A DNA stretch of 64,000 nt, taken from positions 5,084,001 to 5,148,000 of the forward strand of contig BSYQ01000001.1 of the NCBI GenBank assembly GCA_030272585.1. The letters run 5' to 3'. Shown here in pieces: positions 16,506 through 37,046 of this stretch (the first letter of the stretch is position 1; every line of letters starts with the position of its first letter). Below the pieces are notes generated by a model. That model was not told where the DNA came from, did not search any database, and worked only from the letters and a program-made list of their open reading frames with translations. Origin of the DNA: Bryopsis sp. KO-2023 (taxonomy: Eukaryota > Chlorophyta > Ulvophyceae > Bryopsidales > Bryopsidaceae). Both the position numbers and the translations under genes were made by a program.

Positions 16506-16882
16506 TAATCAATGTTTCTTACCTCTGTGTTGTTTCCTGTGTTGCAGTTATCAAGGACCATGTCCTGCAGGCTGCCGGACAAGTCGGGCTGACCTACTAC
16601 AGGCCCACAATAGTCACAGACTGTGGGTCCAATGTAGTCAGCTGCTTCGACCGACTTCTCTTCTGGGACTGGCAACCATGTGTGTTGCACCTGCTGCAGA
16701 CCGCTGTGCGGAAATGGCTGGCTGGGCTGGGGGGCACCAGCCCTAATCTGAAGAAGGCCCTCGACAAGGCCACCGCCTTTGTATCGCATGTGTCGAGGTA
16801 AATTCCATTTGCTGATTTCTGTTCACTTATGTATCATTCTTGTTTGTGGTGTTTGTTTTGTTTTTTGTTTTTTCTGTGTGCT

Positions 16883-17112
16883 TGATACGAGGTGACGAGG
16901 TTAGTGTCTAGATGTCCCATCGGTGAGTGGGTGTGTCACTGTAGAGTAAGGGGTTAGTGTGTTGTGGACGGTACTTAAAGGGTTGTATTTTTGACATTGT
17001 GTAACCTTTGGGGCTGGGTTTGCTATTGTGTTGTGTTCCCACGTTCTACCCTCCTCCACTTGGAGGAGGGCCCCTATCTACCCTTCCCCCTCTGGGGGAA
17101 GGGCCCCTATCA
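16883..17112 (+). repeat. 5' LTR of the non-coding element
   Basis: 230 bp. Its 3' quarter contains two consecutive hairpins (CCTCCACTTGGAGG and CCTTCCCCCTCTGGGGGAAGG), each followed by GGGCCCCTATC. They may act in transcript 3'-end formation or RNA dimerisation; that role is inference. Confidence 0.9.
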
Positions 17113-17115
17113 TTT

Positions 17116-17127
17116 TGGTTTCGGAGC
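17116..17127 (+). promoter_or_regulatory. Primer-binding site TGGTTTCGGAGC
   Basis: Lies 3 bp after the 5' LTR. The same 12 bases follow the 5' LTRs of both Ty3 elements in the window (36618-36607 on the minus strand, and 56670-56681). It resembles the plant initiator-tRNA-Met site TGGTATCAGAGC with two differences. Confidence 0.8.
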
Positions 17128-17389
17128 TTGGGCGTCCCTAAACGACGAGGACGGACGACCCTGTAGGAGGAGCCACCTGACGACGAAAAAGTCAGTGGCT
17201 AGGTTAAGTGCCTATCAAGAGGGGATGGGCAAGGAGTGATGGCACCAAAGGGGGTGGTGCTAGGTGGGATCGAAGGAGTGCGAGTGCACGCGACGAGTTC
17301 GTGAGCACCAGGACGGTTAGGGTAGAGGCGAGCCGGAAGTGCAGCAGACGAGCCAAAGTCAGACAGCGAATGGAAAAGGCCAGAGTCTG

Positions 17390-20300
17390 ACAGCGGACAA
17401 AATGGCGCAGCGGACAAAATAGGTGGCGGAAAAAGGGAGCGGACAGAACTCCGAGGTAGTTCGCCAGAGCCGGAAAAACGAAGTCCACCAAAGCGGTTAA
17501 ACAGAAACGGCGGAGAGTGAGAGCGGACAGAGGCAGAAGGCGGGCAAAGTGGCCCAGTGACCCGCTGCCCTTACACTCTGCTGGGTGGACTCTGATATTC
17601 CAACTCGGAGGAAGAATAGGCGGTGTTGTTGTGAGCTAAAGCGGTTGAGCTTGGAGGAGCACCAGCGGACACACAACACGGAATATCAGCGGACTATCGA
17701 GGCTAGAACTACGGTAGTTTCGCGATCGCGTTGGAGGCGGATTTTAATACATCAAGAGTTGGAGGCGGTCATGAAACAGAAGCTGGAGGTTGTGTTACAC
17801 GGCAGGAGCAGAAACGAGTCTGTATCAACGCACAAACCGCCTGGGCTGATCACCCAGCGGATTAGCAACCGCAAAAGAGCGGATTTTCAGTGCGAAGAGA
17901 AGAAGACGAAGATCTTAAGACTTTATACTGCCAAGAGTTGGACCATAGCGGAAGAATGTAAGCACAACTAGCGACAAGAAGACAAAGAGAGAAAAGAAGT
18001 CGCCAGGCTAATAGAGAGCGGAGGAGCGGCCTGCCAGTTACCTACAAACCGAGTTCAAGCGATAGTGGAGTTCAACGCACCCAAGAGGGAGATTAAACCG
18101 CCTGCAAAGCTGCTAAGTACGCAGGGCGGAAGAGAAGGAATCGTCTGCTAAGCTATTAAGTATGCAGAATGATTTGTTGCAGAAGGAGCTGTTGGAGAGT
18201 ATAGTTCGTTTGGAATGGACTTTCAATAAGCCAAGACCTCACACAAGCGGATATAAGACGAGCGGATTAAATGTAGCTTGCCGCGAGCTATCGAGCATTC
18301 TCGAGAGCTTGAATCTGATTAAGGAGCACGCAATAGCAGTGCCACATTGGATGTTTGTGACTTAATGTTATGAACGGGCAAGTGAAGCTCTGAGCGGATA
18401 TCTTGTGGGTAAACTTTGAGGTCTAATGGATGTGGTAGCGGATTGTGATATTCCGGGCTGAGTGAAGAAGAAGAATTAGAGGTTATTGCCGTGGAAGTGT
18501 ATGGTGGTATTCTTTGGAACTAACCGAGTTGCCATGGAACCAACCGAGGATCACGAGCGGAAAAATTCATTCTCTTTTCAACAGCGGAATAGCAGAGGCG
18601 GAATAAATGAGGTCGTCAAGGCGGATTAAATTAGACCGTCAAGAACCTGAGCCAGAGCGGAAATAAAAGAGCCAACCTGGATGATCAGGTCCAAGGACTA
18701 TTGGCTGAAAGACTAAGCGGAATCATACGTCTGGTCAGGGCGGACACTACCACAAACCATTGAGCGGATATGGCTCACAATACTAGCCATACATGGAAGT
18801 CTAGCGCCAAGAACAACACCCAAAAGTCTAAGGAGTATTCATCGACCAAATTACAGCCGTCAGACTATTGCACTAAGCGGACTAAAAGCTAAGGCAAAGG
18901 CGGACTGTCAGAGCGAACTGCTGAGGCAGAATGCAAAGGCGATGAGGGGGTGTGTCTTGAGCGGAAATTCCAATGCAGCAAAGGTGCAAGCGGACTAAGT
19001 GACAGACGATATATCATATGGAGCATTCAAATTGATCACCGACAAGCGTGTTCTGTCAAATGGAGCGCGAGCAAAGAGTCAGCGGATTTTTGTCACAAGC
19101 AAGAGAACAAGCGGATTATCAAGTGGATTGGAAGTAAGGGCGGATTATACTCGTATTAGCCAGTGTAAGGCATTGAGTTAACCGAACCTGAAGAGCGGAA
19201 AAAGCTACCAAGCGGATAAGGAGTGCTACTGACAAAATAATTTAAAGGAAAAGCGCAAACTCAAGGATCAGCGGAAAAAGCTATGTGTCTGGGAGAGTTG
19301 AGCGCTGAAGAATGGATTCTACTGCTGACAAGCGGACAAAATTATGGAAGATCCTGCAAATGACAAAGCATGCGGAAAAAGATGCATAAGAGCATGTCGG
19401 AGTGGAGGAAACTTGTCAGAGAAGCGGATTATTTAGTGCCAGGGAGATGAGTCCTACCACAGAAGACACATTTGGATGAAGGAGCGGAATTGCATCATCA
19501 CCAAGACTTCAAGAGTTGCTGGAGGCGGAATACTACTGTCAGTTGGGGATTAAAGCGGAAATTTTGAACAAGTAGGCCGACCTAAGAAGGGCGCCACTAA
19601 ATAGAGATTTCCAGGAGCTTAATCCAAAGCTTGAAGGACCAGCAAGCGAAAGATTGACTGGAATTGGAATTGGAAAGAAGCTAACGACAGATATCCACGA
19701 CATGAGCGGATATTGCTTCAGATGGCGGAACACTAGAGTGTATAGGCGGATTACTAGCTTGAGCAGCCTATGGCGCCAGCGGATTCGACCTAAACCGGAC
19801 AATCCTGAAGCAGGCATGGAATGAATGGATCCAGCAATGATGATGGGGAGAATGGACTCCAAAGCGGACTCCAAGGCGGACTATAAGGTTCCAAACTATC
19901 CCAGAAACCGAGAAGCGAGTAAATGGGAGTTCTGAAGCTTTGTGGCCGGAAAAAGGAGTGCTTTGATTCCGCAAATTGAAGAAGTTGTCCACCATTGAGA
20001 GGATGGAAGAACCACGATCAAAGAAGCGGAATACAGCTCTTATTTGAAGCCTTAGCGGACAAATATTGACCGAGCATTGCTCAAGAGCGGATTCCAACAA
20101 ATAGTGGTCACCAAGAGCGGAAATACTACGTCTTGGTAACAAGCCTGGAAGGATGAATTAGACTGCAAAACAGGCGGATATTGCCTGATCAATGGAGGGC
20201 AAGTGGCGGAATTTAAGTGCCACTACACTTGTGTGATATATAGTTTCCTAGGCAGATAAGAAATGCTTGAGAAATAAGCGACCATTACCAGAAGAACCCA

Positions 20301-23300
20301 AAACGCGGACAAAGGAAGCAGCGAATCAATCGGACAATCGCAAGGAAGCGGGTCTGATAACGCCCACCTCAAAGAGAGTTGGGGCGGATTTCCTGAGCGG
20401 ATATTTTAAAAGAGATTTGGCTGGCTACCTGTCAAGCGGAAACAGGGGATGGGGACTTCCTGGAATGGCGAAAAGCATAGCGGAAGGCGGATTGGCTGGA
20501 GAGGAGGCAAATAAAGATTGAGCGTGGAAGCGGCGGTTATGCGTGGAGCATAATCAACAAAGAGGCGGAAATCCAGGTGTGCACGATGGATGGATGCCAG
20601 AAGGCCGGACAAATCCCAAAGACCAGGGATGGCGCAATCCACGCCGAGGCCTAACTTTGTGGAGCAACCAGAGCAGCCTAAAACGCCATACCAAGCAATG
20701 AGCACCACGTGGACAAAAAGGCTTGGGAGACTATTGAGGTGCGGTAGTTTCAACCAGTCTGGCAAGACTGTTATGGTGTATACTGAGAGACCCAAGCTAG
20801 GAGAGCTTGAACCAGGCGAAGCAATCTGGTTGAAGGTTGACAAACAAACAAATCGCGCTAGAGGTCCAAACTAGCGACCGCGAAGCATCCACTGACAGGT
20901 GGTCAGGGCGGGAAACAGAGTTTCCTTGGATGCTACACTTAAAGGCGAGTGAGCGGGCAGATTTGTTGAAGTGGAGAAATATACCAGGCGAGAGAGAAGT
21001 GGTGAACCTCTTCAAAAGGGGAAACCAAGTACCTTGGAGCTAAGAACGAAGCGTTGGAACGCACACCAGAACTCCTTAGAGTCATCTGAGTGTGGCGGAT
21101 TGTTGAAGATGTTAATAAGTTCGACAAAAAGAAGATGCTTCAAGCTCTGTCAGCGGACTGCAAATATGTGTGGAGGAAGAATTTAATTCGAGTATTGTGC
21201 ATTGACAGCCCATTCAGTGAAATGTGCAGAACCGGGTAATCCGTCGGCACCCTTGTCCATAGGGAGAACGGTCTATTCCTGGTTGTTTTGAACGCCTGTG
21301 TTAAGGTGTGTGCCTTTACTCGACATTAAACTTCCGAAGGATTCCTTATATCAGCAAAGTTCAACTTGGACAAGGAGGAACACGATAATTTGAAGTAGGA
21401 AGTCCAAGACCGCAACCTTGAGGAAGGCGGACCTGAGAAGCGGACCTGGAGGGCGGACTAAAGAGGACTAAGCCCTTAGGCGGATTAAACACCTGGAGGG
21501 CGGACTTCAAAACAAATTCCAAAGGCGGATGAAATCAGACAGCCAGAGCGGATTAACTACGACCGCTAGAGCCGGATTTTGAAGGTGAACTTGCGTGGAA
21601 CTACAAGAAGGGACGACTATGCTGATTTGGAAGGCGGATTACAAGGCTTTCGTTCAATACAAGACCACGGGCGGAAGTGCCACATATTATGCAGAAACCA
21701 GCGGACAGAAGAGGATATGAAGAGCTCAAGATTTCGGGCGAAATACCAACAGTTGAGAGGGGACTGTTTGGGCGACAAAGCGGGAACTCTGACGGGGATG
21801 TCTTGCAGCAGGAAAATGGGGGCAAGCTCCTCAACCAGTGTTCTGGAGAGCCGTGGTCAAAACACTGGCCCGCTAGTCGGTTGAGCTGGAGATTATCGTT
21901 CAGGGTACTGAAGAGAAGACGAAGGTCTTCCTCCAGAGGCAAGTCAAGCGTGAAGGAAAAGGAGGAGGACTTCCGACACTTGATGAGGCTCAAGCCGGAG
22001 CCAAAATCAAGATGTGCTAACCCGCTAAGCGGATTAGTTACGTCGGGAAGTCGCTTGTCAAGGGGCGAGCAGGGATGCACAGTTCCCCTCAGGCGGAACT
22101 GCTGTTCGAACAAGGGGTAACCCAACGGGGGTTACCTGGATACTTTCTTCTCGGGAAGGCGTGCATTGACTTCCAGCAAACTAAACCTCGCTGAAAATAG
22201 GATCAAGAGCGGATTTGCCAAGCCACAAGCGCGCAGAAGGAGGACCAAGGGGATTATCCAAAGGCGATTTAACTTTGGACGTGCAAGGTAAAAGAGAGAC
22301 AAAAACTATCGGGGAAGGTGAACACTGCCAAGTGGTACCCGAGTTATTTGTCTGAGGAGCGGAAGTCGACGGACTGACATTCCTTTAACTCTTTCTTGCG
22401 GAACTTTCTATTTAGTGGTATCTAAATGGATAGTGCGGACAAGACCGTCTTGTTGCTGGCGGACTATTTCCAAGGTTCTTTGGAAGGCGGGGGTTAAAAG
22501 GTAATCTCTGTGGCGGAAGGTATATGGAGTGTATTTCGCGTGGAAGTCAACAAGTTTGAAGTGGCGGAACTTGGGGACTAACCGAGCATTGATGAGAGCG
22601 GACTATCTGCGGTGAAAAGAATCGACTCGTGTTTGGATCTAGACAGTATCGAAGAGATAGCGGGCTCGAAAAATGAGCACACATTGCGATTCTATAGGGA
22701 TGGAGTAAGCGGAAATACTCAGTTGGTGATTTACTACCTATAGACGCAACCGTGAAACTTTGGGAAGTTTACATACAAAGCGATGCCGTGAGAAGGATCC
22801 AAAGACGACGGAGGTGGCGGCTCATGCAATGGAAAACAAAAGAAGGAATGTGCGGACATTCAAAAATTACTCTTCTCCAACGAAGGAACCTCGAGCGGAC
22901 GTGGAACTGACCGAAGGGCGGATTATCACAGAAGCCGAGCAAAGAAAGAAACCGAAATAAATCCTGAACTATGACCCGTGCAGACGGAAGACACATACAG
23001 CTGAGTGACTGAATTCGTTCGGGCGGATTAATTGTACATCAGTTGGCGGAAACAGCAACTGAAGCGGATAATGCACTTGTCAGGAAAAAAGCAACTCGAC
23101 TACGGAAGAAGCGAAGTTCTGAAGAGAACTTGAAGGGTATTCGACTGGCGGATTGTGACCAGCGGATTAAGCCTGTTGGGATATGACTGGCGGGTTAATC
23201 TTGGCGGAATCACATTGCTAGCGAATACGAAGACAAGAAGCATTTGGGCGGACAAAATCCAGTACTTAAGGCGGATATCGTGCCTGCAGAAGCGGAAATT

Positions 23301-24800
23301 GTGCTGCAGAAGCGGAATTGTGCCTGTGGAAGCGGATATTGTGCCTGAAGAAGCGACACAATTCCAGTGAGCGGAATATGAAGGCGGAATTGATGATCTC
23401 AAAGAGCCAAAGCGGGAAAAAATCAGTCAAGGCGGAAAATATCAGCCACGGCGGAATTTGAGGATCACGGTCGCACGTACAATTAGGAACGAATGAAAGG
23501 GCGTCAAAGCGAACGTTGGAGCGACCTAGCGGACAACACTAAGCGGAAGTTCTGATCAACAACCGACTTGGAGGCGTGAGGGTAGCTATGCAACGATTGA
23601 CTCAGTCACGAGCGGATTATGGATGTTCTGAAGCTGAGGATGTATTGGAGACTTATGGGGGTTTACCAAAGCATCAGAGGATTGGCCGAAGACAACAAAG
23701 AATCGCCAGGGTGGATTAAATTGGACCACCAGGGCGGATTAATTCAAACCGCCGAAGAAGGAGCGGACATTATTTGAAGACCCAAACTCGGAAAAACATT
23801 GGAGCGGACCACTGAAGACAATAGCACTGGAGCAGAAAGGACGAAGAGGTCAGGGAATGGCCGGACGCTCTGCTGCATATACTGGCTCTCGCTGCTACGT
23901 AGGGACTCTAGTAGCCAACCAGCGGATTGTGATTCGATGAGATCCTGGGGGAAATGTAGGCCTCAGACAAATCTCTATAGCAGTGGCCATACATGTTATG
24001 GATATGCTCGAGCGGCTATTGTTCTGAGGTGTTGCGGCGGAGAAACTCATGGGAGATTCGTAGGGACGTTGAAGAGAGAAGAAGCTGAGAGATCAGCCGG
24101 ACTTCTCATCGGTGTACTGGCTCTCGCTGCTAAGTGGGGACTCTAGCAGTCAACCAGCTTAGTGAGATCCTGGGGGTATCCGCATAGGATTTGGCCTCGG
24201 ACAAATCTCCACACTGATGACCGCTTATATACTAGCGGATAAACGTAACGAATGGAGTGTTGTGCCTAAGTGATATCCGACCAAGCGTTTTACCGAGCGA
24301 AGAACGAAGATGTACCGTGGAAGGAAGGAAAAATATCAGTTGTAAATGAAGAAAACGGAAGTGGAAATCTGACCAAGGAATTGCAGCGGAATTGGAATTG
24401 ACCAAAACTGCAATGGATGAAAAGCCGCAGCGGATATCAACAGCAGCGGACTACAGGAGAGTGTCTGACAAGAGCGAAGCTTATGGTTTCCGACTAAGTG
24501 AAACTGCGAAGCGAGGTAGCGAGCGGAAGTTATAATCTAAGCTTGCGCGGACTTGGAGTCTTGAACGGATAAAGCATAGCGGGCATTTCTTCATGTTCGT
24601 GTGCTGAATCACGAGCAAGAAGACATTGCAAGCAATGCTTATGCCATGTTTAACCTTCTCCTTGGCGGTACTCGTGGGCGGAATCCACATCCGCACCATA
24701 GAACCACGAGTTAGGAGAGGCTTGAGCGGGCTAGTACTAAATGCCCTGATGAAGCAAGCAGACGAAGAAGCGGGCATCCGTCCAAGCAAGAGACACAAGG
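17390..24800 (+). repeat. GCGGA-tiled interior of the non-coding LTR element
   Basis: GCGGA followed by A, T or C, usually preceded by A or G, recurs every few tens of bases on the plus strand only. Counting 18541-19145 by hand gives 15 GCGGA and no TCCGC. The surrounding bases vary, so this is not a tandem repeat. The motif is dense from about 17390 and fades near 24800, before the pyrimidine-rich 3' end. No protein-coding explanation is apparent. Confidence 0.85.
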
Positions 24801-25037
24801 TTTTTGGATTTCACAGAGTATGGGATCTGTTATGCCGTTTGAAAATCATCTTGTTTGCATGATTGTGAGGTTTGTTTTCTATTTTTCTATTTTTCTTCGT
24901 GTTTTGTTCAGTGGCTGGCCCTGTTTCTCTTTTTAGCGGCCAATCAAACTACTTATTCTTTATTTCTTTCGGGTTTTTCTTTCGCGATTACCTTTCTTGA
25001 GTGCTGAGGACACCACTCGGGGGGGGGGGGGAGTAGT

Positions 25038-25267
25038 TGATACGAGGTGACGAGGTTAGTGTCTAGATGTCCCATCGGTGAGTGGGTGTGTCACTGTAGA
25101 GTAAGGGGTTAGTGTGTTGTGGACGGTACTTAAAGGGTTGTATTTTTGACATTGTGTAACCTTTGGGGCTGGGTTTGCTATTGTGTTGTGTTCCCACGTT
25201 CTACCCTCCTCCACTTGGAGGAGGGCCCCTATCTACCCTTCCCCCTCTGGGGGAAGGGCCCCTATCA
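25038..25267 (+). repeat. 3' LTR of the non-coding element
   Basis: 230 bp, no difference found from the 5' LTR on reading. It is preceded by a G12 run and AGTAGT. Confidence 0.9.
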
Positions 25268-26424
25268 GTGCTTGTGAAATATTAATTTTATATTTGACGA
25301 TAACATTTCTGTGTCATGTGATGTTGTGTTACAGATCCACCAGGTCGAAGGCAATCCTGGATAGGCTGTAGAGGGAGGAGTTTCAACGCGCGGCGAAGGA
25401 GGGGGAGGCGGTGGACCTGTTGTCAGAGAGCGACACCGATGACGAGGGCCTCCCATGGATCACCCCCAACAGGGTCCTCACGCTGAAGGTCCCATGCGAC
25501 ACCCGCTGGAACTCCACCTTCCACATGATCGTCCGTCTTTTGGATGTGGAGGGGGCTGCGAAGAGGTGGTTCGAGGTGGAGTTCCAGCGGTACAAGTCGC
25601 CACTGGAGATTGCCGATTGGTAAGTTAATTTCCTGCTGTGCTTATTAAGTTTCTTTATTGATTTTCTGGTTTGTTTCCTGTTTTGTTTTTAATGATTTTC
25701 TGGTTTGTTTATTAAGTTTTTTTTATTGATATTTTGGTTTTCAGGGAGGCCCTCCGCCTATTGAGGACCATCCTGTTCCCGGTGGCGATGACCTCCAAGA
25801 AGCTCGAAGGGAACGATTACCCCACCGGTGGAGACATGCTAAGGATCATTCTGAGGTGTGTAATCCAAATTAAATCCAGGAAACAAAACAGAACCAATAG
25901 CAAAGTGAGGTTTTTTGTTGTTTATATATATATACATATATATATCTAATATATAAACACAGCAGAATCACAAGTACATCAGTAATCCAGGCTGAAAAGT
26001 AAAGTGGGTTTTTTACGAATCTGCCAGATTTTCTCTGTGCTCTGTGTTGATTTGTTTTTGTATGAACTTCAGGTGCTGCAAACACCTCATGAGGGGGTGC
26101 CCAGAGACGACCATCGATCACACCCCGCATCCCTCCGACATCCGGGAGGCGATGTCCGTGTTGGCATGCCACCTGTATGCCCAGATCGACGACCCAAACT
26201 GGGTGTTCGGTGCTGCATGCCTCGCGGTGATGGACCCAACGGTGAACAACAAGTTCATCAGGGAGATGTTCGATGCACCGGCGTGGGCGGAGCTTCCGAA
26301 GGTGATGGCGCAATATCTCGACGCGGACGCTTTCATGACGGAGGTAAGTGTTGCTTTTGCTTGTGTTTTTCTTTCATTGCTTGGGTGCATGTGGATCACT
26401 TAAAAAAGAAGAGAAAGAGAAAAT

Positions 26425-26950: not shown

Positions 26951-27376
26951 TGATAGTGAAGCTTGTGGGTGACGCAATAGTGGTCGGCTGTGTTGATTGG
27001 ATTCGTGATAACTTGCTGGCTAACGCAAGTATACTTGTGGGGTTTGTTGGTTTAGACAACTCTCTAGCTAGCGCGGTTGTGAACGCTACTAGAGCACTTG
27101 GGTTGGGAAGTGATTGCGTCAGGCAAACACTTAACACACACACACACAAACACACACACAAGCGGGAACACACCAATCCCACGAATCCCGAGTTCTTACA
27201 AAATAAAGTGAATAAGAATGTCAAAACAACGAGTGGGCCTCTTAAGTACCCCTAAGTGTAGTACGCTGACGCATGCCCCAAACTCTGGGTCTAATCTGTC
27301 TTACTCGTGAACCCACATGCGTCAGCCACCCTCGGCTCTATCCCAAACTACCTCGTATAGCGCTAAAAGACTAACA
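26951..27376 (-). repeat. 3' LTR of Ty3-A
   Basis: 426 bp, starting TGTTAG and ending CTATCA on the minus strand. Contains a (CA)n stretch. Confidence 0.93.
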
Positions 27377-27563
27377 TACGCCCCCCCCGCAAAAAGTGGG
27401 CGCCCACGCACACCAAAACACAAAGAAAAACAAAAACACAAAAACAAAACTCACCCACTCCCATACCCACACCCAACTGTCTTGGACCTGTCTCTTGCTC
27501 TGACGTCTCTGACAGCTGCTGCACGCACACACTTGGTCGACGATAACTCCTTTTCCCTCCTCC

Positions 27564-29378
27564 TTAACGCTGTTCCTGCGCTTGCGCTTGCTGAATAGCA
27601 CGCTGCTCCTGCGCATGCGCTTGCTGCACTGCACGATACCGGACACAGGGATCAAATGCGGCAGCCACCCTCTTGGACTTTAGGAATGGCAGATCCCTTG
27701 TGATGCCGGACACCTTGAGCTGCCGCTTCACACACATGTTGCAGTGTGGCAACTTCTCGTGCTCAGCCGGGAACGGAGGGATTTCTTCGAACGTCGAGCG
27801 TGTCAGCTTCAACATATGGGCAGGTAGAGAGAATGGGGAGACGGTGGCGATGGACTTGTTGTCCACTTCCGCGACTTTTTGGACCGCCGTGACGATGCGC
27901 CCCAGCATCGAGTATGCCAACCAATGAGCATCACACACAAGGTGATATCCACAAGGAAGGACGGAATACTTCTTCTGCGTCAGCCGCTGAGCACTTGCTT
28001 GCATTGGGCTTCTCCCGCACCAAATGCACATGGGCAACTCGTGAAAGTGCCGGTTGCCGCGGTAATTTTGCAAGGCTCGGTCCCTGGGGTTAGTATATTG
28101 GACCTTCGGCCATTTCTCTGACGCAGTGATGGGGTTGCAAGCCTCCTCGATATCCTCCCGTGACAGGTTCACTTCGCTGGGTGCAGCATCCACTTTGTCC
28201 TGAGCAGCCGCCCTTAGTCTTCTGAGCTTAACCTTTTCTCGGAAAGCCCGAAGTGCTGCTTCTGTTGGAGCTAACTCCAACGGTGGATGGACCGCACGCT
28301 GAACCTCTGTCACCTGGCTTGGCCCTTCATCATTCCTTATTTCCCCGTCCTCCAGTTCAGAACTAGGACCTTCGAGCCTAGGAGGTGGACTGCCGAAGTC
28401 AATTTCTTCGTTAAAATCCAAGTCCAAAAGCTCCTCCTCTCTCATGTCGAATAAGTCCTCCCCCGGTGCTATTGCGGTAGCCTCATCTCCGGGAGTCTGA
28501 ACTGTTGGCGCTGGTTGTGAGGGTGCTGGAGTCTTTAATGCGGCAGCCTTTAACTTGAGTAACAAGTTGGCTCTTGCTGCATCTCCAGGCATACGATCCC
28601 TCGGTGGCTCACCACCTTCATCGTCACCGTCCTCTCGCCTTCTCTTTCCGTGTGGATCTTCATCCCTACACGGCGAGCTTGGGCGTTTGTTTTTCCCTTT
28701 CCCCTTGCCCTTGCTTGAGCCTCCCGCATCATCGTCCTTGGACGGTTCCAGATCAAGTGTTGCGTTTGACAACAGAACTTGGACTTGGCGATCCAGTTCT
28801 TCGCGTACCCGTGGTGCTGGTACCGCCGGGTTCAAACGCAGCATCTTGTCCGTTGTTTCGCTCTGCACTTGAAGTTTTTCAGAGCCGTCTCTGAGGGACT
28901 CTCCCAGCAAATCGATCTGCAGCTCTTGTTCTGCCAATTCCTTCTTAAGGTTGTTGGCTGCTGCACTCCACGCGGTTGCTACAGCTCGCTGCAGCGTTTC
29001 CTCTACCGCGGTAAATCGATCCACCATTCCCCCGAGAGCTTGCTTGCGGAGGTCATTCTCACGATGGTTAGCCATCATGTGAGATTGGAACCGCTGCTTC
29101 TTCAGCTTCATGGCTTCCAATTTTTCTTCCAAGACCTTGGTCTTGTCCTCCGCTTCTTTCTTTTCCGCCTCCGCCTTATCCTTGGCTTTCTCCGCTGCCT
29201 CCTTCGCAGCCTCAGCTGCTTTCGTCCGGTCACTCAACTCTGCGAGCTGCCGGGTTAAGGCCTCATTGTTCTGCAGCACCTCCTCTGCGGTCGTAACAAA
29301 GTGCTGCAGCTCCTCTTCTTTTTGAGCTACCTCCGCTTCCAACCTCGCAATAATTGCGGCGGGTGTGTCGGCAGCCAT
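27564..29378 (-). CDS. Ty3-A ORF3, sense ORF downstream of pol
   Basis: 604 codons from the ATG at 29378 (upstream GTG-started extension is less likely). It lies between the pol stop (29829) and the 3' LTR in the same orientation as gag-pol. Residues about 10-110 and 140-190 are strongly predicted coiled coil (alternating K/E/A heptads such as KAAEAAKEAAEKAKDKAEAE). A charged, low-complexity middle follows, with a basic GKGKGKNKRP nuclear-signal-like stretch near residue 245. The C-terminal third is cysteine/histidine-bearing (CIWCGRSP, CGYHLVCDAHW, CNMCVKR), suggesting a zinc-binding fold. The end is a Q/A repeat. I do not recognise the family. Ty3-C has an ORF with a similar coiled-coil start in the same place, which argues that it is a real component. 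A spliced or internally promoted RNA would be needed to express it. Confidence 0.7.
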   Translation of the reverse strand: MAADTPAAIIARLEAEVAQKEEELQHFVTTAEEVLQNNEALTRQLAELSDRTKAAEAAKEAAEKAKDKAEAEKKEAEDKTKVLEEKLEAMKLKKQRFQSHMMANHRENDLRKQALGGMVDRFTAVEETLQRAVATAWSAAANNLKKELAEQELQIDLLGESLRDGSEKLQVQSETTDKMLRLNPAVPAPRVREELDRQVQVLLSNATLDLEPSKDDDAGGSSKGKGKGKNKRPSSPCRDEDPHGKRRREDGDDEGGEPPRDRMPGDAARANLLLKLKAAALKTPAPSQPAPTVQTPGDEATAIAPGEDLFDMREEELLDLDFNEEIDFGSPPPRLEGPSSELEDGEIRNDEGPSQVTEVQRAVHPPLELAPTEAALRAFREKVKLRRLRAAAQDKVDAAPSEVNLSREDIEEACNPITASEKWPKVQYTNPRDRALQNYRGNRHFHELPMCIWCGRSPMQASAQRLTQKKYSVLPCGYHLVCDAHWLAYSMLGRIVTAVQKVAEVDNKSIATVSPFSLPAHMLKLTRSTFEEIPPFPAEHEKLPHCNMCVKRQLKVSGITRDLPFLKSKRVAAAFDPCVRYRAVQQAHAQEQRAIQQAQAQEQR

Positions 29379-29828
29379 TATGTTTGTCGGAAAGAAAGAT
29401 ATAAACAACGGTTTGTGCGTCTTTAGACTCTTTTTCACTCAGGAGCTCGCTCCGTTTACACAAACACTAGGGCAAAATGGTTCGAGGGCTGCGCTTATAA
29501 GGCTGGGTGACTCGTACACTTTCCTCGTTGAGTTATTGGGGTGAGACACCAACGTTTCGCTCGGTTGGAGTCTCGTCAAGACCACCTCAACACGTCACTT
29601 GATAGGGGTTTTCTCGGAACAACCACACTATCTCGAATGTGACATCGTTTGCCCGGTTTCTAAAGTACTACTGAAGCTACACTTACTGCGCCAGCCAAAT
29701 AACTTAGGCACCTAACGCATTAAAGATAAAGAGTTGGTTTGGAAGTCGACAGAGTTTTTCTAAGGTATCCTTTTTCGCGCCCCCTTGCTATAAGGAGTTC
29801 CACCTTAGCCATCAAACACTCTGTTTCC

Positions 29829-32800
29829 CTATTCTCTTCCTTTCTGCAACTCTTTTCTTTCTTTCTCTTTAAATGCGCGAAGTATATCTGGTGCGTTAAC
29901 CAGATTAGCTTCAGGTTCCCAAGTAGCGTCAAGTAGATCGTATCCTTTCCACAGCACTAGGTATTCACGATTGCGTTTACCTCTAGCCCTTAGGATATTT
30001 TCGACCTCATACTCTACTTCGCTACCAATCAACTCTCCTTCTGGAGGTTGTATTTGCCTGCTGTTATCACTCGAGGCGTGATAACGCTTGAACTTAGAAA
30101 CATGAAACACTGGGTGAATGAGCCATGTTTCCGGAAGTTGAACTCTGTAAGCCACCTTTGATATTTTCTCCACAATTTCAAAGGGACCCACAAATCGACG
30201 GCGCAGTTTGGGACTTACTTTGTTCAAAGCAGCCAACGGAATAAAACGGCTTTTTATCAGGACTTTATCCCCTTTTTCAAAAGCAATATCTTTCCTCTTC
30301 TTGTTTGCACTCACACACATTCTGTGTTGTGCTCTAGAGTAATATGCTTTTGCGGTATCTAAGTCCTGTGCCATCCGTGCTACCATAGTCTTAACTGCTT
30401 CCACTTGAAATTGCGTTGCCGTCCCACCAATGTTTGGTGTTTCTGGATGGTACCCATACATCAAGTATGCAGGTGCGAACCCTGTACTCGCATTCACTGC
30501 ATTGTTTGCTGCAAACTCTGCTGTAGGTAAATACTCAACCCACTTATGGGGATACCTCTCAGCATATGGCCTTAAGAAATTTTCCAGAGTACGTATGGTA
30601 ACCTCACTCTGCCCATCCGTTTGAGGGTGGTAAGCTGTACTCATACGAATCTCTGTACCCAGAGCTTTAAAAAGCGTCTGCCAGAACTTGCTGGTAAAGC
30701 GAGGGTCTCTATCAGACACAATCACTTTAGGTAGGCCATGGTTGCGGTAAACATGTTCGATAAAAAGTTGGGCGTATCCTGCAGCGGTAATCTCTTTAGT
30801 ACATGGGGCGAAATGCACAAACTTGGTAAGTCTATCGACAAAGACAGCTACAGCACTAAACCCATTGGATGCTGGTAGATCTGTCACCAAGTCAGTGGTA
30901 ATCTGCTCCCACTTCCGCTCAGGTATTGGCAGGGGTTGAAGTAAGCCCATAGGCTTCTGTGTGTCAGCCTTTATTTGTTGGCACACAGGGCATTCGCGCA
31001 CAAATGCCTTCAACTCATTCATCCACCCCTTCCACCAATATCGCCGCGCGAGGATTTCTCCTGTTCGCGCTGGTCCTGTATGGCCTGCTGAAGGTGTCTC
31101 ATGGCACTCCTTCATGATCTTATTGCGCTGGCCTTTAGGAACCACCACTTTCTCGACTAATCCTCTCTTTGGGACCGTCCAGAGTATTCCCTCTCTGAGG
31201 AAATATCCCTCAACTTCCTCGCCACTCTCAAGCTTTCGCAATATCTTCACCAAGGAGTTATCAGCTTGGAGGGCTTGTTTCCACTCGTCTTGGCTTGCTT
31301 GATGCACTTGCCAAGTGGAAATGTTCATCGCAGTTTCCACGGGCTTAGGAACACTGCGGGAGAGAGCATCTGCTAACACATTAGCCTTGCCTTTGATATA
31401 GGAGATCTTGGGGTTGATCGAAGTCAGGTACCCCGCCTCAAGCCATCTTGCTTGGGTTCTAGAAAGGTTCCTCTGCGACAGAATATGCGTCAGAGGTTGG
31501 TGGTCAGTGAACACTGTTACTCCACCCGCACAACCTTCTAGATAATGTCTCCACTGCACCATCGCATAACATATTGCACACAACTCTTTGTCGTATGGTG
31601 CATAGTTAAGCTCGGCAGGCTTGAATCTACGTGAGAGGTAAGCTATTGGCTGTAGCCCCTCTCCGTGATCCTGTGTTAACACGGCACCGATGGCCTCATT
31701 CGACGCATCAGTGATCACAGTGTAAGGCAGTGACGCATCTGGAAAAATAAGGACGGGAGCTTGACTTAAACGCTTTTTCAGCTCATTGAATGCGCCACGC
31801 TCAACCTGTCCCCATCTCCAGGGATGGTCTTTTTTCACTAAGTCATGGAGTGGTCCAGCAACATGTGCAAACTGGGGAATGAATTTCCTGTAGTATGAAA
31901 CCATTCCAAGGAAACTACGTACATCACTAACACTCTGTAGTTCCTTCCACTCCTTCATTGCCTTCACTTTTTGTTCCTGTGGTTTTAACCCACTTCCGCT
32001 AATGCGGTAGCCAAGATAGTCTACTGTTGCGACAGCCAGCTCACTTTTACTTGCCTTAGCAAAAAGCTGATATTCTGCTAGTCGCGACAGGACTTTCTCT
32101 AAGTGTTCGGCATGCTGTTCCATGTTTTCAGAGAAGATGAGTATGTCATCGATAAAGACAACAACAAAATCATCTAAAAACTCTGCGAGTAGGTCTTGCA
32201 CTAGAGTTTGGAATTGCGCTGGGCAATTGGTTAGCCCAAAAGGCGCTACCAAAAACTCAAAGTGACCGTATCTCGTGCGGAACGCTGTTTTATCTGTATC
32301 AGATGGCCTTACTGGAAATTGCCAATAGCCTGATCGCAGATCTAACTTTGAGAACACTTTGGCTTTGAACACTCTATCCATCAATTCTTCTGGCAGGGGT
32401 AAAGGATATCGGTTTTTCACCGTCACCTTATTGATCCACCTGTAATCCACACACATCCTTAAGCCTCCATCCTTTTTCGGTACAAACAGGATTGGCGCGC
32501 CCCAAGGGGACTCGGATGGTTTGATTTTCTTCTGTTCCAGAAGGTAGTCCACTTGTGCTTTCACTTCATCCAGCTCTGCTGGTGAAAGCTTGTATATTGG
32601 ACGATGGATAGGTGTTGGATCCTCCAGGTCTATCTTAAACTCATGACCTTTTCTCTTCGGAGGGATCCCTGGGGGTAAATCACGAGGGAACACACCACGG
32701 TGTGTTTCTACCACCTTTTTAATTTCGGCAGGGGTGTCTGAACGAATAAGTTTGCCAATCTCATCCTCAGTGTTGAATGGCTGTGTTCGCTCTATTGCGT

Positions 32801-33872
32801 CAGGCAATTCATGTTGGCCTAAAGCTTTCTCTTCAGACTCTTGCACTACAACCATGAATGCTGTCTCTGTTTTGAGATGACGCATCATTCTCTTAGCTGA
32901 ACACTCAGTCACTGGCACTTCTTGCAGTATCGACTGTACTTTTCGTTCAGGTTCAATACTCTCTTGGGTTGGATGACGCAACGGGAGATGAAACACTTGG
33001 CTGTTTTTGCAAACTGAAATCTCATTCTGCTGAAAGTCTATGCGGGGGTTTTCTTTCTGCAACCAAGGCATGCCCAATATTAGGTCATAACCAAGGTCTG
33101 GGAACAGATCCGCTTTCATTTTGCACTTCAGCCCTCCTATCTTTACTCGGAGGTTGTTACAGCTGCCAGCCAGTTCTTTAATATCCCCGTTTGCCAACAT
33201 TGCTCTCTTGGAGCTTGGTGTAATCGACAACCCGAGATCACGCGCTACCTTATCATTGATATAGTTTGCGGTACTTCCACAATCAATGAATGCATAAAGG
33301 TCCGTGGTCTTGATCCGTGCTTTTACTTCGTACCCTCTCACAGGCACTTCTTGAATTTTTAACAGAGGGCATGTGTCACCCTTGGTTGACGAAGTTGATC
33401 GAACTTCTGACACATTAACTCGCTCTGTGGTAGACCGCTGGGTTGTTTCTGACCCACTATCGTCTACGTCTGCAGGCAGGGACTCCTGTAGACTACTCTG
33501 CGACTCCAATGAGCCCACAGATTCACTAACAGAGGGAAGAGATGCAGATGACGCATGAGGCGCGTCCATCTCATCCGGTGTGCTTTCCTTCTGTTCATTT
33601 TTCCAATCGCAGTTGTCATGTGCCGATTGGGTAGATGTGGAGAGTGTCTCTGTTCTCTCTTCACGCGGTGTACTAGTCCGCTCCTCAGGTTTTCCGCTGT
33701 GAGTACAAACCTTTTTCGAGGCACCTACTTTTGATCTTAGCTTCCTACGCCGCCTACGAACTCTGTTTCGCTTACGACGTTTGCGTCGGCCAGGCTCAGA
33801 CGAAGCAGTTTCCTGCCTGGCGGTCAGTTTAACATTTTTTTTACATCGGGGAGGTTTTTCACCTCCTCCAAT
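29829..33872 (-). CDS. pol: Ty3-A Pol polyprotein (protease, RT, RNase H, integrase, chromodomain)
   Basis: The frame is open from 33872 and overlaps the end of gag by about 50 nt in the -1 frame. The first Met in frame is at 33569 (1246 codons from there). From that Met: aspartic protease DCGSTANYI (about 95); reverse transcriptase with DYRWINKVTVKNRYPLP and the FIDD active site (about 470); RNase H TDASNEAIGAVL (about 620); integrase zinc motif HETPSAGHTG...CPVCQQ (about 830-880); DDE residues in TTDLVTDL, SDRDPRFTS and QSEVTIRTLENF; GPFEIVEKISKVAYRVQLP; and a C-terminal chromodomain (VEYEVENIL...LVLWKGY...ATWEPEANL, about 1185-1235). The overlap region encodes a very basic stretch, RRKRRKRNRVRRRRRK. 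All catalytic motifs are present. Confidence 0.93.
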   Translation of the reverse strand: MGGGEKPPRCKKNVKLTARQETASSEPGRRKRRKRNRVRRRRRKLRSKVGASKKVCTHSGKPEERTSTPREERTETLSTSTQSAHDNCDWKNEQKESTPDEMDAPHASSASLPSVSESVGSLESQSSLQESLPADVDDSGSETTQRSTTERVNVSEVRSTSSTKGDTCPLLKIQEVPVRGYEVKARIKTTDLYAFIDCGSTANYINDKVARDLGLSITPSSKRAMLANGDIKELAGSCNNLRVKIGGLKCKMKADLFPDLGYDLILGMPWLQKENPRIDFQQNEISVCKNSQVFHLPLRHPTQESIEPERKVQSILQEVPVTECSAKRMMRHLKTETAFMVVVQESEEKALGQHELPDAIERTQPFNTEDEIGKLIRSDTPAEIKKVVETHRGVFPRDLPPGIPPKRKGHEFKIDLEDPTPIHRPIYKLSPAELDEVKAQVDYLLEQKKIKPSESPWGAPILFVPKKDGGLRMCVDYRWINKVTVKNRYPLPLPEELMDRVFKAKVFSKLDLRSGYWQFPVRPSDTDKTAFRTRYGHFEFLVAPFGLTNCPAQFQTLVQDLLAEFLDDFVVVFIDDILIFSENMEQHAEHLEKVLSRLAEYQLFAKASKSELAVATVDYLGYRISGSGLKPQEQKVKAMKEWKELQSVSDVRSFLGMVSYYRKFIPQFAHVAGPLHDLVKKDHPWRWGQVERGAFNELKKRLSQAPVLIFPDASLPYTVITDASNEAIGAVLTQDHGEGLQPIAYLSRRFKPAELNYAPYDKELCAICYAMVQWRHYLEGCAGGVTVFTDHQPLTHILSQRNLSRTQARWLEAGYLTSINPKISYIKGKANVLADALSRSVPKPVETAMNISTWQVHQASQDEWKQALQADNSLVKILRKLESGEEVEGYFLREGILWTVPKRGLVEKVVVPKGQRNKIMKECHETPSAGHTGPARTGEILARRYWWKGWMNELKAFVRECPVCQQIKADTQKPMGLLQPLPIPERKWEQITTDLVTDLPASNGFSAVAVFVDRLTKFVHFAPCTKEITAAGYAQLFIEHVYRNHGLPKVIVSDRDPRFTSKFWQTLFKALGTEIRMSTAYHPQTDGQSEVTIRTLENFLRPYAERYPHKWVEYLPTAEFAANNAVNASTGFAPAYLMYGYHPETPNIGGTATQFQVEAVKTMVARMAQDLDTAKAYYSRAQHRMCVSANKKRKDIAFEKGDKVLIKSRFIPLAALNKVSPKLRRRFVGPFEIVEKISKVAYRVQLPETWLIHPVFHVSKFKRYHASSDNSRQIQPPEGELIGSEVEYEVENILRARGKRNREYLVLWKGYDLLDATWEPEANLVNAPDILRAFKEKERKELQKGRE
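33824..33842 (-). promoter_or_regulatory. Candidate -1 frameshift site at gag/pol overlap of Ty3-A
   Basis: The gag frame reads GTA AAA AAA ATG TTA AAC TGA. It offers two -1 slippery heptamers: A_AAA_AAA, and G_TTA_AAC directly before the stop. Either would join gag to the -1 pol frame. G_UUA_AAC is a known slippery type in arteriviruses. Confidence 0.6.
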
Positions 33873-36475
33873 CTAGGACATTGCCTCACAGGGTGACCCT
33901 TCTTTCCACAAAGATAACAATTATATCCCCCTCCCCCCTGGGGGTTCTGTCTTCCCTGATTGGCTTGTCCTCTTCCACGGTTACCACCACCGCGTCCACG
34001 TCCACCACCACCACGTCCTCCTCCTCGTCCTTGTTGCTGTTGCTGCTGCTGTTGCACTCCTGCGGCAGCTTGTGGTGGTGCTTGGGCTGGTGGTGTGGGG
34101 TTCTGCTGCTGCTGACCCTGATTCTGGCCTTTCTTTTTTCTTCCACCACGCCAGACTCCTTTCTTTTTCTGATTGGTTTGCCCTCCTTGGCCTTGTGTTC
34201 CAACTCCAAGGGCTTCCAATCGTTCGGCGGATATGATGGCGGCCTCGACATCTCGAGGTACCGTTGCCGCGACTAACTTCTGAACTTCACTTTTAAGTCC
34301 ATCCACGAAGAGCAAATACTGGTGATCCTCTTCGAGGTCTGGAATCCTCAAGACTAACCGCTGAAACTCTTTTACAAACTGCTTCACGGTTCCAGTCTGC
34401 TTGAGTTTATGGAGGTCACGCCACGCTTCATCTCGATCACTAGAGAATTCGAAAGCTGTAGCTAAGCCATCCATGAAGTCCATCCAGTCACGGAAGGGTG
34501 GTCTTTCACCTCGGTGAATTTTCAACTCTTGCATCGTTAACCAATCCGAGGCAGCTCCATAAAGGTTAGTGGCCATAATCGATTGCCACTGTGCTTCATG
34601 CACTCCGCAGGTCCTCAAATACCGCGTCATGAGCACTTGCCATTTACGGGCTTTTGGTTCTCCACTTCCGTTAAATGCGCGAGGCATTTGCAACTTGACG
34701 GTGCTAGGCAACCACTGTCCTTGCCTAGGAGGTCCTGGGCCTGCTGGTCCAGCGCCACCTCCACCTCCACCTCCACCAGGAGGTCCACCGGGAGGTCCAC
34801 CGCCTCCACCATCTCCACCGCCGCCACCACCTCCACCGCCATCAGGCGCACCTGGAATGCGGGAAGGTGGGCGGTTTCGTCTGTCGCGGTAATCATCACC
34901 GCCGTCATCATCTGGGTCGTCATCACCAGGGTCTCCAAAGTTACCTCGCATGCGAGGAACTCGACTGGGTCCACCAGTAGACTCATATGAACCAAGTGCA
35001 GCAAAGGGATTATTTTCTACCCTTGCTCCCAATGCACTTAACCCAAGTCCCAATCTTCCAGTACGTGTGGGGATCTGCATGGGTTCTTTTCCCTTCTCTT
35101 CTCTGACCTGTGCCTTAGCACGCTCAAGGTCAATTTGATATAACACTTCTGCTGAGGAGAGAACTCTTGGGTTAGTTCGTGTGGGTCTACGTGATCCATC
35201 GGCAGAGTCGGGTTCTGAGATGCGTACTCCAGGCTGAGCTCTTGTACTTGGAGGTATCAATTGAGGGAATGTGAAATCAGCGTCTGGTGCGCTATCCACT
35301 GCAGTGCATGGTGGTGCTTCTGCAGCAACAATTTCACCCTCCTCGACCTGTACTGCTGGAGGAGCCGGTATTGTTGAGGTTCCTGCCCCAACCATTCCTA
35401 CCGCGAAGCTCTGATCTAGTGGCGGCCATGATGCAGCCAACTGCTTTACTGATTTCTTCGGCAGTGGCATCCCAAAGGCTGAGTCCTCAGGCTCAGGAGA
35501 AGTTGATTCTTCACGCTCTGGCGATACTGCACGAGCATCACTTCCACTTTGGGCACTCTGACTTCCGCCACTCACATCCTCCATGCTTCGTTCCAGGCCA
35601 GATAATCTTAAGGCAACCACATCAGCTGCATCTTGCTGCTGATCCCAGGTTTTGGATGCCTTTTTCTCCAAGGCAATCAAATCTTTTTGAATTGCTACTC
35701 TGGAGCTCTGCAAACGCTTCACCTCCGCACCTTGCTTATGCAAGGACTCCCGAAACAATTCTAGAGTCCGTTCGACTTTTTCGTTGGAATCCGCAACAGT
35801 TCCTAATAAGCCTTCAATTCTCCGCCCTTGAACAAGGGATAACTCGGAGAGTTGTTTTAACTGAAGTGCTGATGCTTCAGTTGCTTCTTTTAGGTCAGCA
35901 AAACGAGAGTCCGCTAGAATGTCTGCGGCATCCATTCTCCTCGTTATTGCGTCCACAGAAGCTTTGATCTCGGCTCTTTCTTTCCTATGGTCGATATCCT
36001 GGCGTAATAGCCTCTGCTCGTATCGACTATGTTGAGCCGCTACTGAATCCAGCTTCTGCTGTTGCGACACCACCGCATGCTGTGTGGCCTCAACCTGTTG
36101 CGCATGCTGGTGCTGTGTTTCCAGCGCCTGCCCGATCACCTCTGATGCGCCAGCCAGTTGGTTCGACACAGAGGCCTCAGCATGGGCTAGCCTCTGCCCC
36201 AGTGTCTGGTCAACTTGCTGCAGGTGACCCCTTAGCCCGTGGGCTAAATCGTCCACACGGTCATGGACCGCATCCACATCCTCTCTTAAGGCTTCCGCAT
36301 CAGCTCCCATGTCTATGTCGACAGCTGCTTGCTGGACATTGTGGATGTTCTGGACGTTTATTTGTTGATACACAACATTGGGTGCGTCAGGCAATTCCTC
36401 ATCGAACTCAGGTTCAATCCCTGGCTCTTCAACTTGAGGCTCGCGCACTGCCAATGCGTGTTCACGGTCAGCCAT
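33824..36475 (-). CDS. gag: Ty3-A Gag
   Basis: 883 codons. The long N-terminal half is coiled coil (VHDRVDDLAHGLRGHLQQVD and following, about 60-290), followed by an acidic/proline linker. A Gly/Pro-rich tract (about 535-580) precedes the retrotransposon Gag core (about 600-760, VKLQMPRAFNGSGEPKARKW, YLRTCGVHEAQWQ, FRDWMDFMDGLATAFEF). A Q-rich and RGG-rich region then leads to one CX2CX4HX4C zinc knuckle (CYLCGKKGHPVRQC) at the C-terminus. It starts about 145 nt downstream of the 5' LTR. At 883 residues it is much longer than a minimal Ty3 Gag, mainly because of the coiled-coil extension. Confidence 0.92.
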   Translation of the reverse strand: MADREHALAVREPQVEEPGIEPEFDEELPDAPNVVYQQINVQNIHNVQQAAVDIDMGADAEALREDVDAVHDRVDDLAHGLRGHLQQVDQTLGQRLAHAEASVSNQLAGASEVIGQALETQHQHAQQVEATQHAVVSQQQKLDSVAAQHSRYEQRLLRQDIDHRKERAEIKASVDAITRRMDAADILADSRFADLKEATEASALQLKQLSELSLVQGRRIEGLLGTVADSNEKVERTLELFRESLHKQGAEVKRLQSSRVAIQKDLIALEKKASKTWDQQQDAADVVALRLSGLERSMEDVSGGSQSAQSGSDARAVSPEREESTSPEPEDSAFGMPLPKKSVKQLAASWPPLDQSFAVGMVGAGTSTIPAPPAVQVEEGEIVAAEAPPCTAVDSAPDADFTFPQLIPPSTRAQPGVRISEPDSADGSRRPTRTNPRVLSSAEVLYQIDLERAKAQVREEKGKEPMQIPTRTGRLGLGLSALGARVENNPFAALGSYESTGGPSRVPRMRGNFGDPGDDDPDDDGGDDYRDRRNRPPSRIPGAPDGGGGGGGGGDGGGGGPPGGPPGGGGGGGGAGPAGPGPPRQGQWLPSTVKLQMPRAFNGSGEPKARKWQVLMTRYLRTCGVHEAQWQSIMATNLYGAASDWLTMQELKIHRGERPPFRDWMDFMDGLATAFEFSSDRDEAWRDLHKLKQTGTVKQFVKEFQRLVLRIPDLEEDHQYLLFVDGLKSEVQKLVAATVPRDVEAAIISAERLEALGVGTQGQGGQTNQKKKGVWRGGRKKKGQNQGQQQQNPTPPAQAPPQAAAGVQQQQQQQQGRGGGRGGGGRGRGGGNRGRGQANQGRQNPQGGGGYNCYLCGKKGHPVRQCPRLEEVKNLPDVKKMLN

Positions 36476-36606
36476 GGTCTCTCAGCCACTATTTGGGAGT
36501 ACTCAACAACCACGGTTGGAGTTTCTCTCTACCAAACAAACAAACAAAAACGTTTGTTGCGCCACGTTCACAAGTTTCGATCTCAAGAACTTAAAGTTCT
36601 TGCCCC

Positions 36607-36618
36607 GCTCCGAAACCA
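36607..36618 (-). promoter_or_regulatory. Primer-binding site of Ty3-A
   Basis: TGGTTTCGGAGC on the minus strand, two bases after the 5' LTR end. Confidence 0.8.
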
Positions 36619-36620
36619 AT

Positions 36621-37046
36621 TGATAGTGAAGCTTGTGGGTGACGCAATAGTGGTCGGCTGTGTTGATTGGATTCGTGATAACTTGCTGGCTAACGCAAGT
36701 ATACTTGTGGGGTTTGTTGGTTTAGACAACTCTCTAGCTAGCGCGGTTGTGAACGCTACTAGAGCACTTGGGTTGGGAAGTGATTGCGTCAGGCAAACAC
36801 TTAACACACACACACACAAACACACACACAAGCGGGAACACACCAATCCCACGAATCCCGAGTTCTTACAAAATAAAGTGAATAAGAATGTCAAAACAAC
36901 GAGTGGGCCTCTTAAGTACCCCTAAGTGTAGTACGCTGACGCATGCCCCAAACTCTGGGTCTAATCTGTCTTACTCGTGAACCCACATGCGTCAGCCACC
37001 CTCGGCTCTATCCCAAACTACCTCGTATAGCGCTAAAAGACTAACA
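36621..37046 (-). repeat. 5' LTR of Ty3-A
   Basis: 426 bp, matching the 3' LTR at every base compared. Confidence 0.93.

What the first reader, a model, noticed from the sequence alone, without database searches (positions are those of the whole stretch)
16883..25267. Recently mobile 8.4-kb LTR element that encodes nothing recognisable but is tiled with a strand-specific GCGGA motif
The LTRs (230 bp) showed no difference on reading and the 5-bp duplication is exact, so the element moved recently. Its 7.9-kb interior has no gag or pol domain. Instead GCGGA(A/T/C) recurs about every 40 bases on one strand (15 GCGGA against 0 TCCGC in 18541-19145; about 0.6 expected). The flanking bases vary, so this is not a satellite. 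Strand bias points to a function in the RNA, such as a distributed binding or packaging motif that lets a non-coding RNA recruit the Gag of a coding relative. That function is inference.
Basis: partly seen in the sequence, partly recalled or inferred. Interest (0 to 1): 0.88.

Follow-up and report, generated by a model that had tools for sequence, protein, structure and literature searches.

The report
Gene-less mobile element tiled with motif
A young jumping DNA element that carries no recognisable genes has one short sequence word about 120 times, nearly all on one strand, and the same word clusters in the control region of a different, gene-carrying mobile element of the same genome, so it may be the label by which such RNAs get packed.

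Summary
The 8,385-bp element at 16883-25267 has identical 230-bp LTRs, a GTGCT duplication, a primer-binding site and a polypurine tract. It belongs to a recently active family of about 40 copies, usually about 9.1 kb; no pol relic was found. GCGGA occurs 117 times on the sense strand (13 in shuffles), TCCGC 3 times. The full motif is R-GCGGA-H-W (92 against 3), indifferent to reading phase, without fixed flanks or hairpins.

A genome scan for motif clusters led to a coding Ty3 element (Y) with no alignable similarity. The 606-nt leader before its gag holds 7 RGCGGAHW (0.12 expected) and no TCCGC; a relative about 80% identical holds 5. Leaders of seven other LTR lineages lack such a cluster. 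I read the family as a LARD-type parasite whose RNA carries a dispersed protein-binding motif, most likely for a Ty3 Gag. Binding, transcription and packaging are inferred.

Against this: the motif core is not measurably better conserved between copies than matched sites (84 changes, 93 expected), and LTR ends, primer site and AGATCT-rich leader resemble another coding family (X), not Y. The partner is not settled.

The parts
16878..16882 (.). 5' copy of the target-site duplication GTGCT
16883..17112 (+). 5' LTR, TGATACG...CCCCTATCA, 230 bp, identical to the 3' LTR
17116..17127 (+). primer-binding site TGGTTTCGGAGC; an 18-base stretch around it has 1025 matches (3 mismatches allowed) against 99 for the reversed control in the genome, so it is a common PBS of its LTR elements
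17320..17335 (+). point where this copy lacks about 500 bp of leader (with an AGATCT array and GCGGA sites) that the 20 other fetched copies have in whole or part
17393..20569 (+). first part of the RGCGGAHW array
20580..21090 (+). longest motif-free stretch; 40 matches in the genome, 94-100% identical, read as copies of this family; the frame at 20554-20874 has no Pfam match
21095..24682 (+). second part of the RGCGGAHW array
25019..25031 (+). polypurine tract, a run of 13 G, just before the 3' LTR
25038..25267 (+). 3' LTR
25268..25272 (.). 3' copy of the target-site duplication GTGCT

Best explanation
It is a non-autonomous LTR retrotransposon of the LARD type, without recognisable genes. 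Its RNA is mobilised in trans by proteins of coding Ty3 elements. The dispersed, sense-strand motif RGCGGAHW is a linear RNA-binding site, most likely for the RGG/CCHC tail of a Ty3-type Gag, and tiles the RNA so that it competes well for packaging. In the coding element Y the full motif clusters in the leader before gag, where retroviral packaging signals usually lie. Shown: the element, its recent mobility, the motif, its strand bias, its cluster in the Y leader. Inferred: transcription, binding, packaging, the identity of the protein.
For: GCGGA 117 against 13, TCCGC 3; RGCGGAHW 92 against 3.0, most one-mismatch words near chance. Phases equal, 40/39/38. 14 copies without large inserts each hold 110-134 GCGGA and 2-6 TCCGC in the part fetched. 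15 of 17 copies examined have an exact 5-bp duplication; 15 of 17 LTR pairs are identical and 2 differ at one base, while the interiors of 16 copies differ by 0-3.9%: the family has moved recently and most differences arose in active lineages. Genome scan for three motifs close together: 933 matches against 83 for the reversed control; outside the family it led to the leader of coding element Y: 7 RGCGGAHW in 606 nt (0.12 expected), all 7 of its GCGGA in the full context, 0 TCCGC; other Y copies 5 and 6, and a lineage at about 80% identity 5. Y and the element have no alignable similarity. Both RNAs need packaging, only one needs translation. Y Gag ends in an RGG-rich tail and a CCHC knuckle, as do the Gags of X, A and C. 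Motif spacings of 12-30 are in excess, 46 against 30.6 +/- 4.2.
Against: The motif core changes about as often as trinucleotide-matched sites (84 against 93.3, P 0.27); whole-motif loss is 5.7% per site against 7.8% for NCGNN control words, P 0.44. Relative to the commonest letters there were 108 losses and 21 gains, which looks like slow decay. Y's LTR ends and the sequence before its 3' LTR differ from the element's; PBS context, LTR end, AGATCT leader array and G-run tract resemble family X, whose leader has no GCGGA. Leaders of seven other lineages lack a motif cluster. In the listed rows of the genome scan, matches outside the family are about as many as the reversed control predicts (11 rows in 9.7 Mb against about 9), so the Y cluster rests on its seven sites and its place. 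No expression or binding data.
Confidence: 0.45

Rival explanations
1. The motif is an RNA site for something other than Gag: a host RNA-binding protein (export, stability, splice suppression) or a small RNA whose seed it matches, so that the element's RNA acts as a sponge or decoy.
For: Linear motif with no flank pairing; strand bias 117:3; many sites with free flanks resembles known sponge RNAs (recalled: CDR1as, NORAD, meiRNA); the Y leader is also a place for export or stability signals.
Against: In 145 kb of other sequence held the motif shows little strand bias (26 against 19, 0.155 per kb and strand) and one cluster, which is coding. No small-RNA data.
Confidence: 0.25
2. Neutral origin: the array is left over from old short-unit duplication or template switching in reverse transcription, seeded by a motif-bearing unit, and now decays.
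For: Some local tandem units contain the motif (21-bp unit x4 at 23271-23355, 23-bp and 19-bp units). Losses exceed gains; core not significantly constrained. The Y leader has a tandem repeat beside its motifs.
Against: Flanks beyond one base before and three after are near background. One-mismatch relics are few, 50 against 37.5 by chance beside 92 intact sites. Does not explain the same extended motif in the unrelated Y leader.
Confidence: 0.17
3. The motif works in DNA: a binding site for a transcription or chromatin factor inside the transcribed region.
For: A cluster lies downstream of the 5' LTR in Y and, in the longer copies, near the end of the leader piece.
Against: Most DNA sites work in either orientation; here 117 of 120 are on one strand, and the array runs to 24.7 kb, far from the promoter.
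Confidence: 0.08
4. The interior is a decayed coding element whose GCGGA words come from Ala-Glu/Asp codons.
For: Such in-frame GCGGA do occur in a Gag-like ORF of this genome (L038), and family X's 3' region has 9 GCGGA with 7 in one phase. Copy L024 has a 205-aa frame antisense in the interior.
Against: Here the phases are 40/39/38; no pol match by profile HMM while most 60-aa pieces of a real pol score well, to 2.8e-37; tblastn with eight Ty3-type protein queries gives nothing below E 0.18.
Confidence: 0.03

Closest known systems
LARD (large retrotransposon derivatives)
   Same: LTRs, PBS, PPT, over 4 kb, no genes, many young copies that must be mobilised in trans (definition seen in passages of PMC6696364; the founding barley paper is cited there, not held here)
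   Different: a single short strand-specific motif repeated over 100 times; I recall no LARD described so, and the listings showed none
BARE2, parasite of BARE1 Gag
   Same: an element that cannot make Gag and is packaged in another element's particles, with conserved dimerisation and packaging signals (passages of PMC3735527)
   Different: BARE2 is recalled to keep most coding sequence; here nothing recognisable is coded and the proposed signal is dispersed
Dispersed packaging signals of RNA viruses
   Same: many sites with a shared core and varied surroundings along the RNA (passages of PMC6281560)
   Different: those described there are stem-loops in viral genomes; this motif shows no hairpin context
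Sirevirus repeated motifs
   Same: high-copy short motif in non-coding parts of an LTR element (passages of PMC2829016)
   Different: those are symmetrical CGG-CCG boxes in LTRs and before env; this one is asymmetric, sense-only and internal

Membership tests
LARD | two LTRs with target-site duplication | tested here: met
LARD | PBS and PPT present | tested here: met
LARD | length over 4 kb without coding capacity | tested here: met
   28 LTR-to-LTR spans read are 6.6-9.5 kb, median 9.1; I left out of that list longer pairs (nested inserts) and two pairs of about 4.4 kb. 14 of 20 fetched loci have no ORF of 200 aa; of the other 6, L024's is antisense in the interior (205 aa), the rest lie wholly or mainly outside the parts aligned to the family, by coordinates
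LARD | mobilised by proteins of another element | not testable with these tools
   implied by mobility without recognisable genes
Ty3 (Metaviridae) | Ty3-type pol or gag | tested here: not met
   so it is not filed as a Ty3 element, though PBS and PPT layout fit
dispersed packaging-signal system | repeated motif over the RNA far above chance | tested here: met
dispersed packaging-signal system | motif present in the leader of a coding element | tested here: met
   one lineage (Y) of eight tested
dispersed packaging-signal system | motif conserved more than its surroundings | tested here: inconclusive
   not met among copies 0-3.9% apart; number roughly kept in a Y-related leader about 80% identical, 5 against 7
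dispersed packaging-signal system | binds the coat or Gag protein | not testable with these tools
   none
small-RNA sponge | complementary small RNA of the host | not tested
   no small-RNA data

The most novel reading that the evidence does not exclude
A gene-less retrotransposon has turned nearly its whole 8-kb RNA into an array of Gag-binding sites, RGCGGAHW, and so outcompetes the coding elements it parasitises; the coding element Y clusters the same sites in its leader. The motif would be a sequence-defined, dispersed packaging code of Ty3-type elements.
Probability: 0.35. Interest if true: 0.87.

Novelty: new variant of a known kind. Interest (0 to 1): 0.68.

Why it matters
A review of Ty1 and Ty3 packaging says that the sites of Gag binding in their RNAs are not precisely defined (passages of PMC4974528). 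Here evolution has produced an RNA with nothing recognisable but cis-signals and one repeated word, and the word recurs in a coding element's leader. That gives a ready probe: one short oligonucleotide and two Gag proteins would go far to decide it. If true, it shows how a parasite without genes competes for particles.

Tried and rejected
Hairpin context: no clear pairing across the motif, predicted accessibility like control words. Coding reading and decayed pol: rejected. Captured host sequence: the three interior pieces searched match only what I read as this family. Chimeric LTR at G000:C2:124075: I first took it for a recombinant with a coding element, then saw that the coding family X has its own LTR starting there, so it is an X insertion beside or in a piece of our LTR. 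Motif in X's 3' region: 9 GCGGA against 2.1, but 7 of 9 in one phase, so probably a coding relic. GCGGA excess inside Y's genes: 37 against 20.3 in synonymous shuffles, but TCCGC is raised too, 12 against 6.0, so not strand-specific; full-context RGCGGAHW in the Y pol part is 5 against 0.92. 3' regions of six other Ty3 loci (L032-L037): no array. Rfam families in the window: none at gathering score. The species was not identified.

A GCGGA excess in L065 (5 against 1.3, P 0.01) lies in the gag frame of an element-A copy, not in its leader. L063 and L066 have frames open almost from the PBS, so they are weak tests of a leader.

First conservation test gave a core ratio of 0.76 (P 0.04) with context taken from the column majority; with the window copy's own letters it is 84 against 93.3, P 0.27. 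I rely on the second.
Full report
WHAT IS THERE. The window is a stretch of an unnamed 91-Mb genome in 28 contigs, rich in Ty3-type pol genes. The element at 16883-25267 has two identical 230-bp LTRs, GTGCT on both sides, a PBS TGGTTTCGGAGC at 17116 and a run of 13 G before the 3' LTR. The longest stop-to-stop frame inside is 176 aa, on the minus strand.

THE MOTIF. GCGGA occurs 117 times in the interior, 13.2 expected from dinucleotide shuffles with a maximum of 23 in 300; TCCGC 3 times, 3.3 expected. The base before is A or G in 95%, the base after is not G in 97%, and the next two are mostly A or T. RGCGGAHW counts 92 against 3.0; of 15 words with one core base changed, GCGGG (10 against 2.5) and CCGGA (6 against 1.6) exceed chance clearly, the rest little or not; a pyrimidine before the core gives 5 against 1.9, and a G or C at the last place 16 against 2.6. 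The three phases hold 40, 39 and 38 sites, so this is not codon use. Spacings below 12 are rare (1 against 4.8, P 0.045) and those of 12-30 in excess (46 against 30.6 +/- 4.2). Pairing across the motif is not clearly enriched (best z 2.9 of 240 position pairs) and its predicted accessibility is like that of control words.

THE FAMILY. The LTR with the interior start gives 41 matches, three interior pieces give 40-42, with identities of 89-100% apart from one short piece at 80%, and the LTR start gives 93; the tool calls such counts lower bounds. In 15 fetched pairs plus L014 and the window copy, 15 of 17 have an exact 5-bp duplication, 15 of 17 LTR pairs are identical and 2 have one mismatch. 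The window copy and 15 others differ by 0-3.9% in the aligned interior; five of the 20 fetched were left out there for low cover. So post-insertion change is slight and most differences arose while the family was moving. Fourteen copies without large inserts have 110-134 GCGGA and 2-6 TCCGC each in the part fetched. The window copy is the odd one: it lacks about 500 bp of leader that matches in all 20 fetched loci, only partly in L013 and L024.

WHAT IT IS NOT. No pol relic: a profile HMM finds nothing in the interior of the window copy or six others (best E 1.6) while most 60-aa pieces of a real pol score well, to 2.8e-37; two hits in fetched loci lie in the flanks. tblastn with eight Ty3-type queries gives nothing below 0.18. 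Five of the longer frames have no significant Pfam match. 14 of 20 fetched loci have no frame of 200 aa; among the other six, one frame, of 205 aa in L024, lies within the interior, antisense.

THE LINK TO CODING ELEMENTS. A genome scan for three motifs close together gives 489 + 444 matches against 48 + 35 for the reversed control. Of the rows listed (about 100), which reach 9.7 Mb of contig C1, 11 are outside the family: a 15-bp minisatellite (2 rows), one sequence resembling an Ala-rich coding repeat (5 rows; coding by analogy with L038, not tested) and one further sequence at two places (4 rows). That sequence is the leader of a coding Ty3 element, here Y: gag with PF03732 and pol with protease, RVT_1 and RNase H follow, and pol and a 3' LTR continue in L069. 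The 606 nt from the PBS to the gag ATG hold 7 RGCGGAHW against 0.12 and no TCCGC; gag holds 2 (0.68) and the pol part tested 5 (0.92). From the density in 145 kb of other sequence (0.155 per kb and strand), seven in 606 nt has a Poisson chance near 1e-11, about 2e-5 for the genome, if sites were independent, which repeats violate; four of the seven sites lay in the stretch that the scan selected. The Y leader has 16 full-length matches in the genome and some partial ones; two at 89-90% hold 5 and 6 sites, and one lineage at about 80% holds 5, some in the same place and others new, by eye. Leaders of seven other lineages have no such cluster: A, C and X, shown to be coding, a relative of X (L068), and L063, L064 and L066, open frames without a Pfam gag match in the 1.1 kb read. 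There is no alignable similarity between Y and the gene-less element.

WHAT DOES NOT FIT. Only the fourth base is slower (11 against 30, P 0.007); the third base is faster (36 against 23.7), as are the bases just before (30 against 16.9) and after (44 against 19.4). With over 100 redundant sites and little divergence the power is low. Also, the gene-less element looks more like X than Y at its ends: LTRs ending TATCA, the same PBS context, a G-run before the LTR and an AGATCT array in the leader: 5 in L012, 4 in X, 5 in the X relative copy L067, 4 in L068, 0 in Y. It may therefore use X-type enzymes, Y-type Gag, or neither.

MECHANISM. The RNA has no use for a translation signal, yet shares the motif with a leader. 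Functions common to both RNAs are packaging, export and reverse transcription. Strand bias speaks for RNA. Gag tails with RGG boxes and a CCHC knuckle, present in Y, X, A and C, are plausible readers; in yeast Ty3 the knuckle is critical for packaging and the binding sites are not precisely defined (passages of PMC4974528). Hence the proposal of a dispersed packaging motif, at 0.45, with other RNA readers at 0.25.

PLACE AMONG KNOWN THINGS. By structure it is a LARD (passages of PMC6696364). By lifestyle it is like BARE2 (passages of PMC3735527). By anatomy of the signal it is nearest to dispersed packaging signals (passages of PMC6281560), but linear. The searches, in a library of open papers only and judged by their listings, showed no LARD or retrotransposon with such an array; the nearest is the Sirevirus repeated motif (passages of PMC2829016).

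Noticed in passing
L012:440-1160 and leaders of X (L031, L029, L067) and its relative L068: The palindrome AGATCT is repeated in the leaders of the gene-less family and of the X group (4-5 copies; 0.2-0.6 expected in L012, L031 and L029) and not in the rest of the gene-less interior or of X: a candidate dimerisation signal.
   Followed up: partly
G000:C11:3724572-3743089 (L018, L019, L051): Two gene-less copies, with no difference in the aligned part, share a middle LTR: a tandem LTR-interior-LTR-interior-LTR array with period 9,144 bp.
   Followed up: no
L038 (G000:C3:3137300-3140000): A Gag-like ORF with a long Ala-Glu/Asp/Lys-rich stretch sits behind a piece of X-type pol; nearly all its GCGGA are in one frame and are codons.
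   Followed up: partly
window 27567-29438 (-): Element A (26951-37046) has a third ORF of 624 aa after pol, without a Pfam match; its 6 GCGGA are all in frame.
   Followed up: no
L024 (G000:C3:2851400-2860300): A copy of the family whose inner part is inverted relative to its ends.
   Followed up: no
motif sites of the family, bases -1 and +5: The two bases flanking the core change about twice as fast as matched sites, mostly A-G and C-T; the bases found there stay 93% R and 97% not-G.
   Followed up: partly
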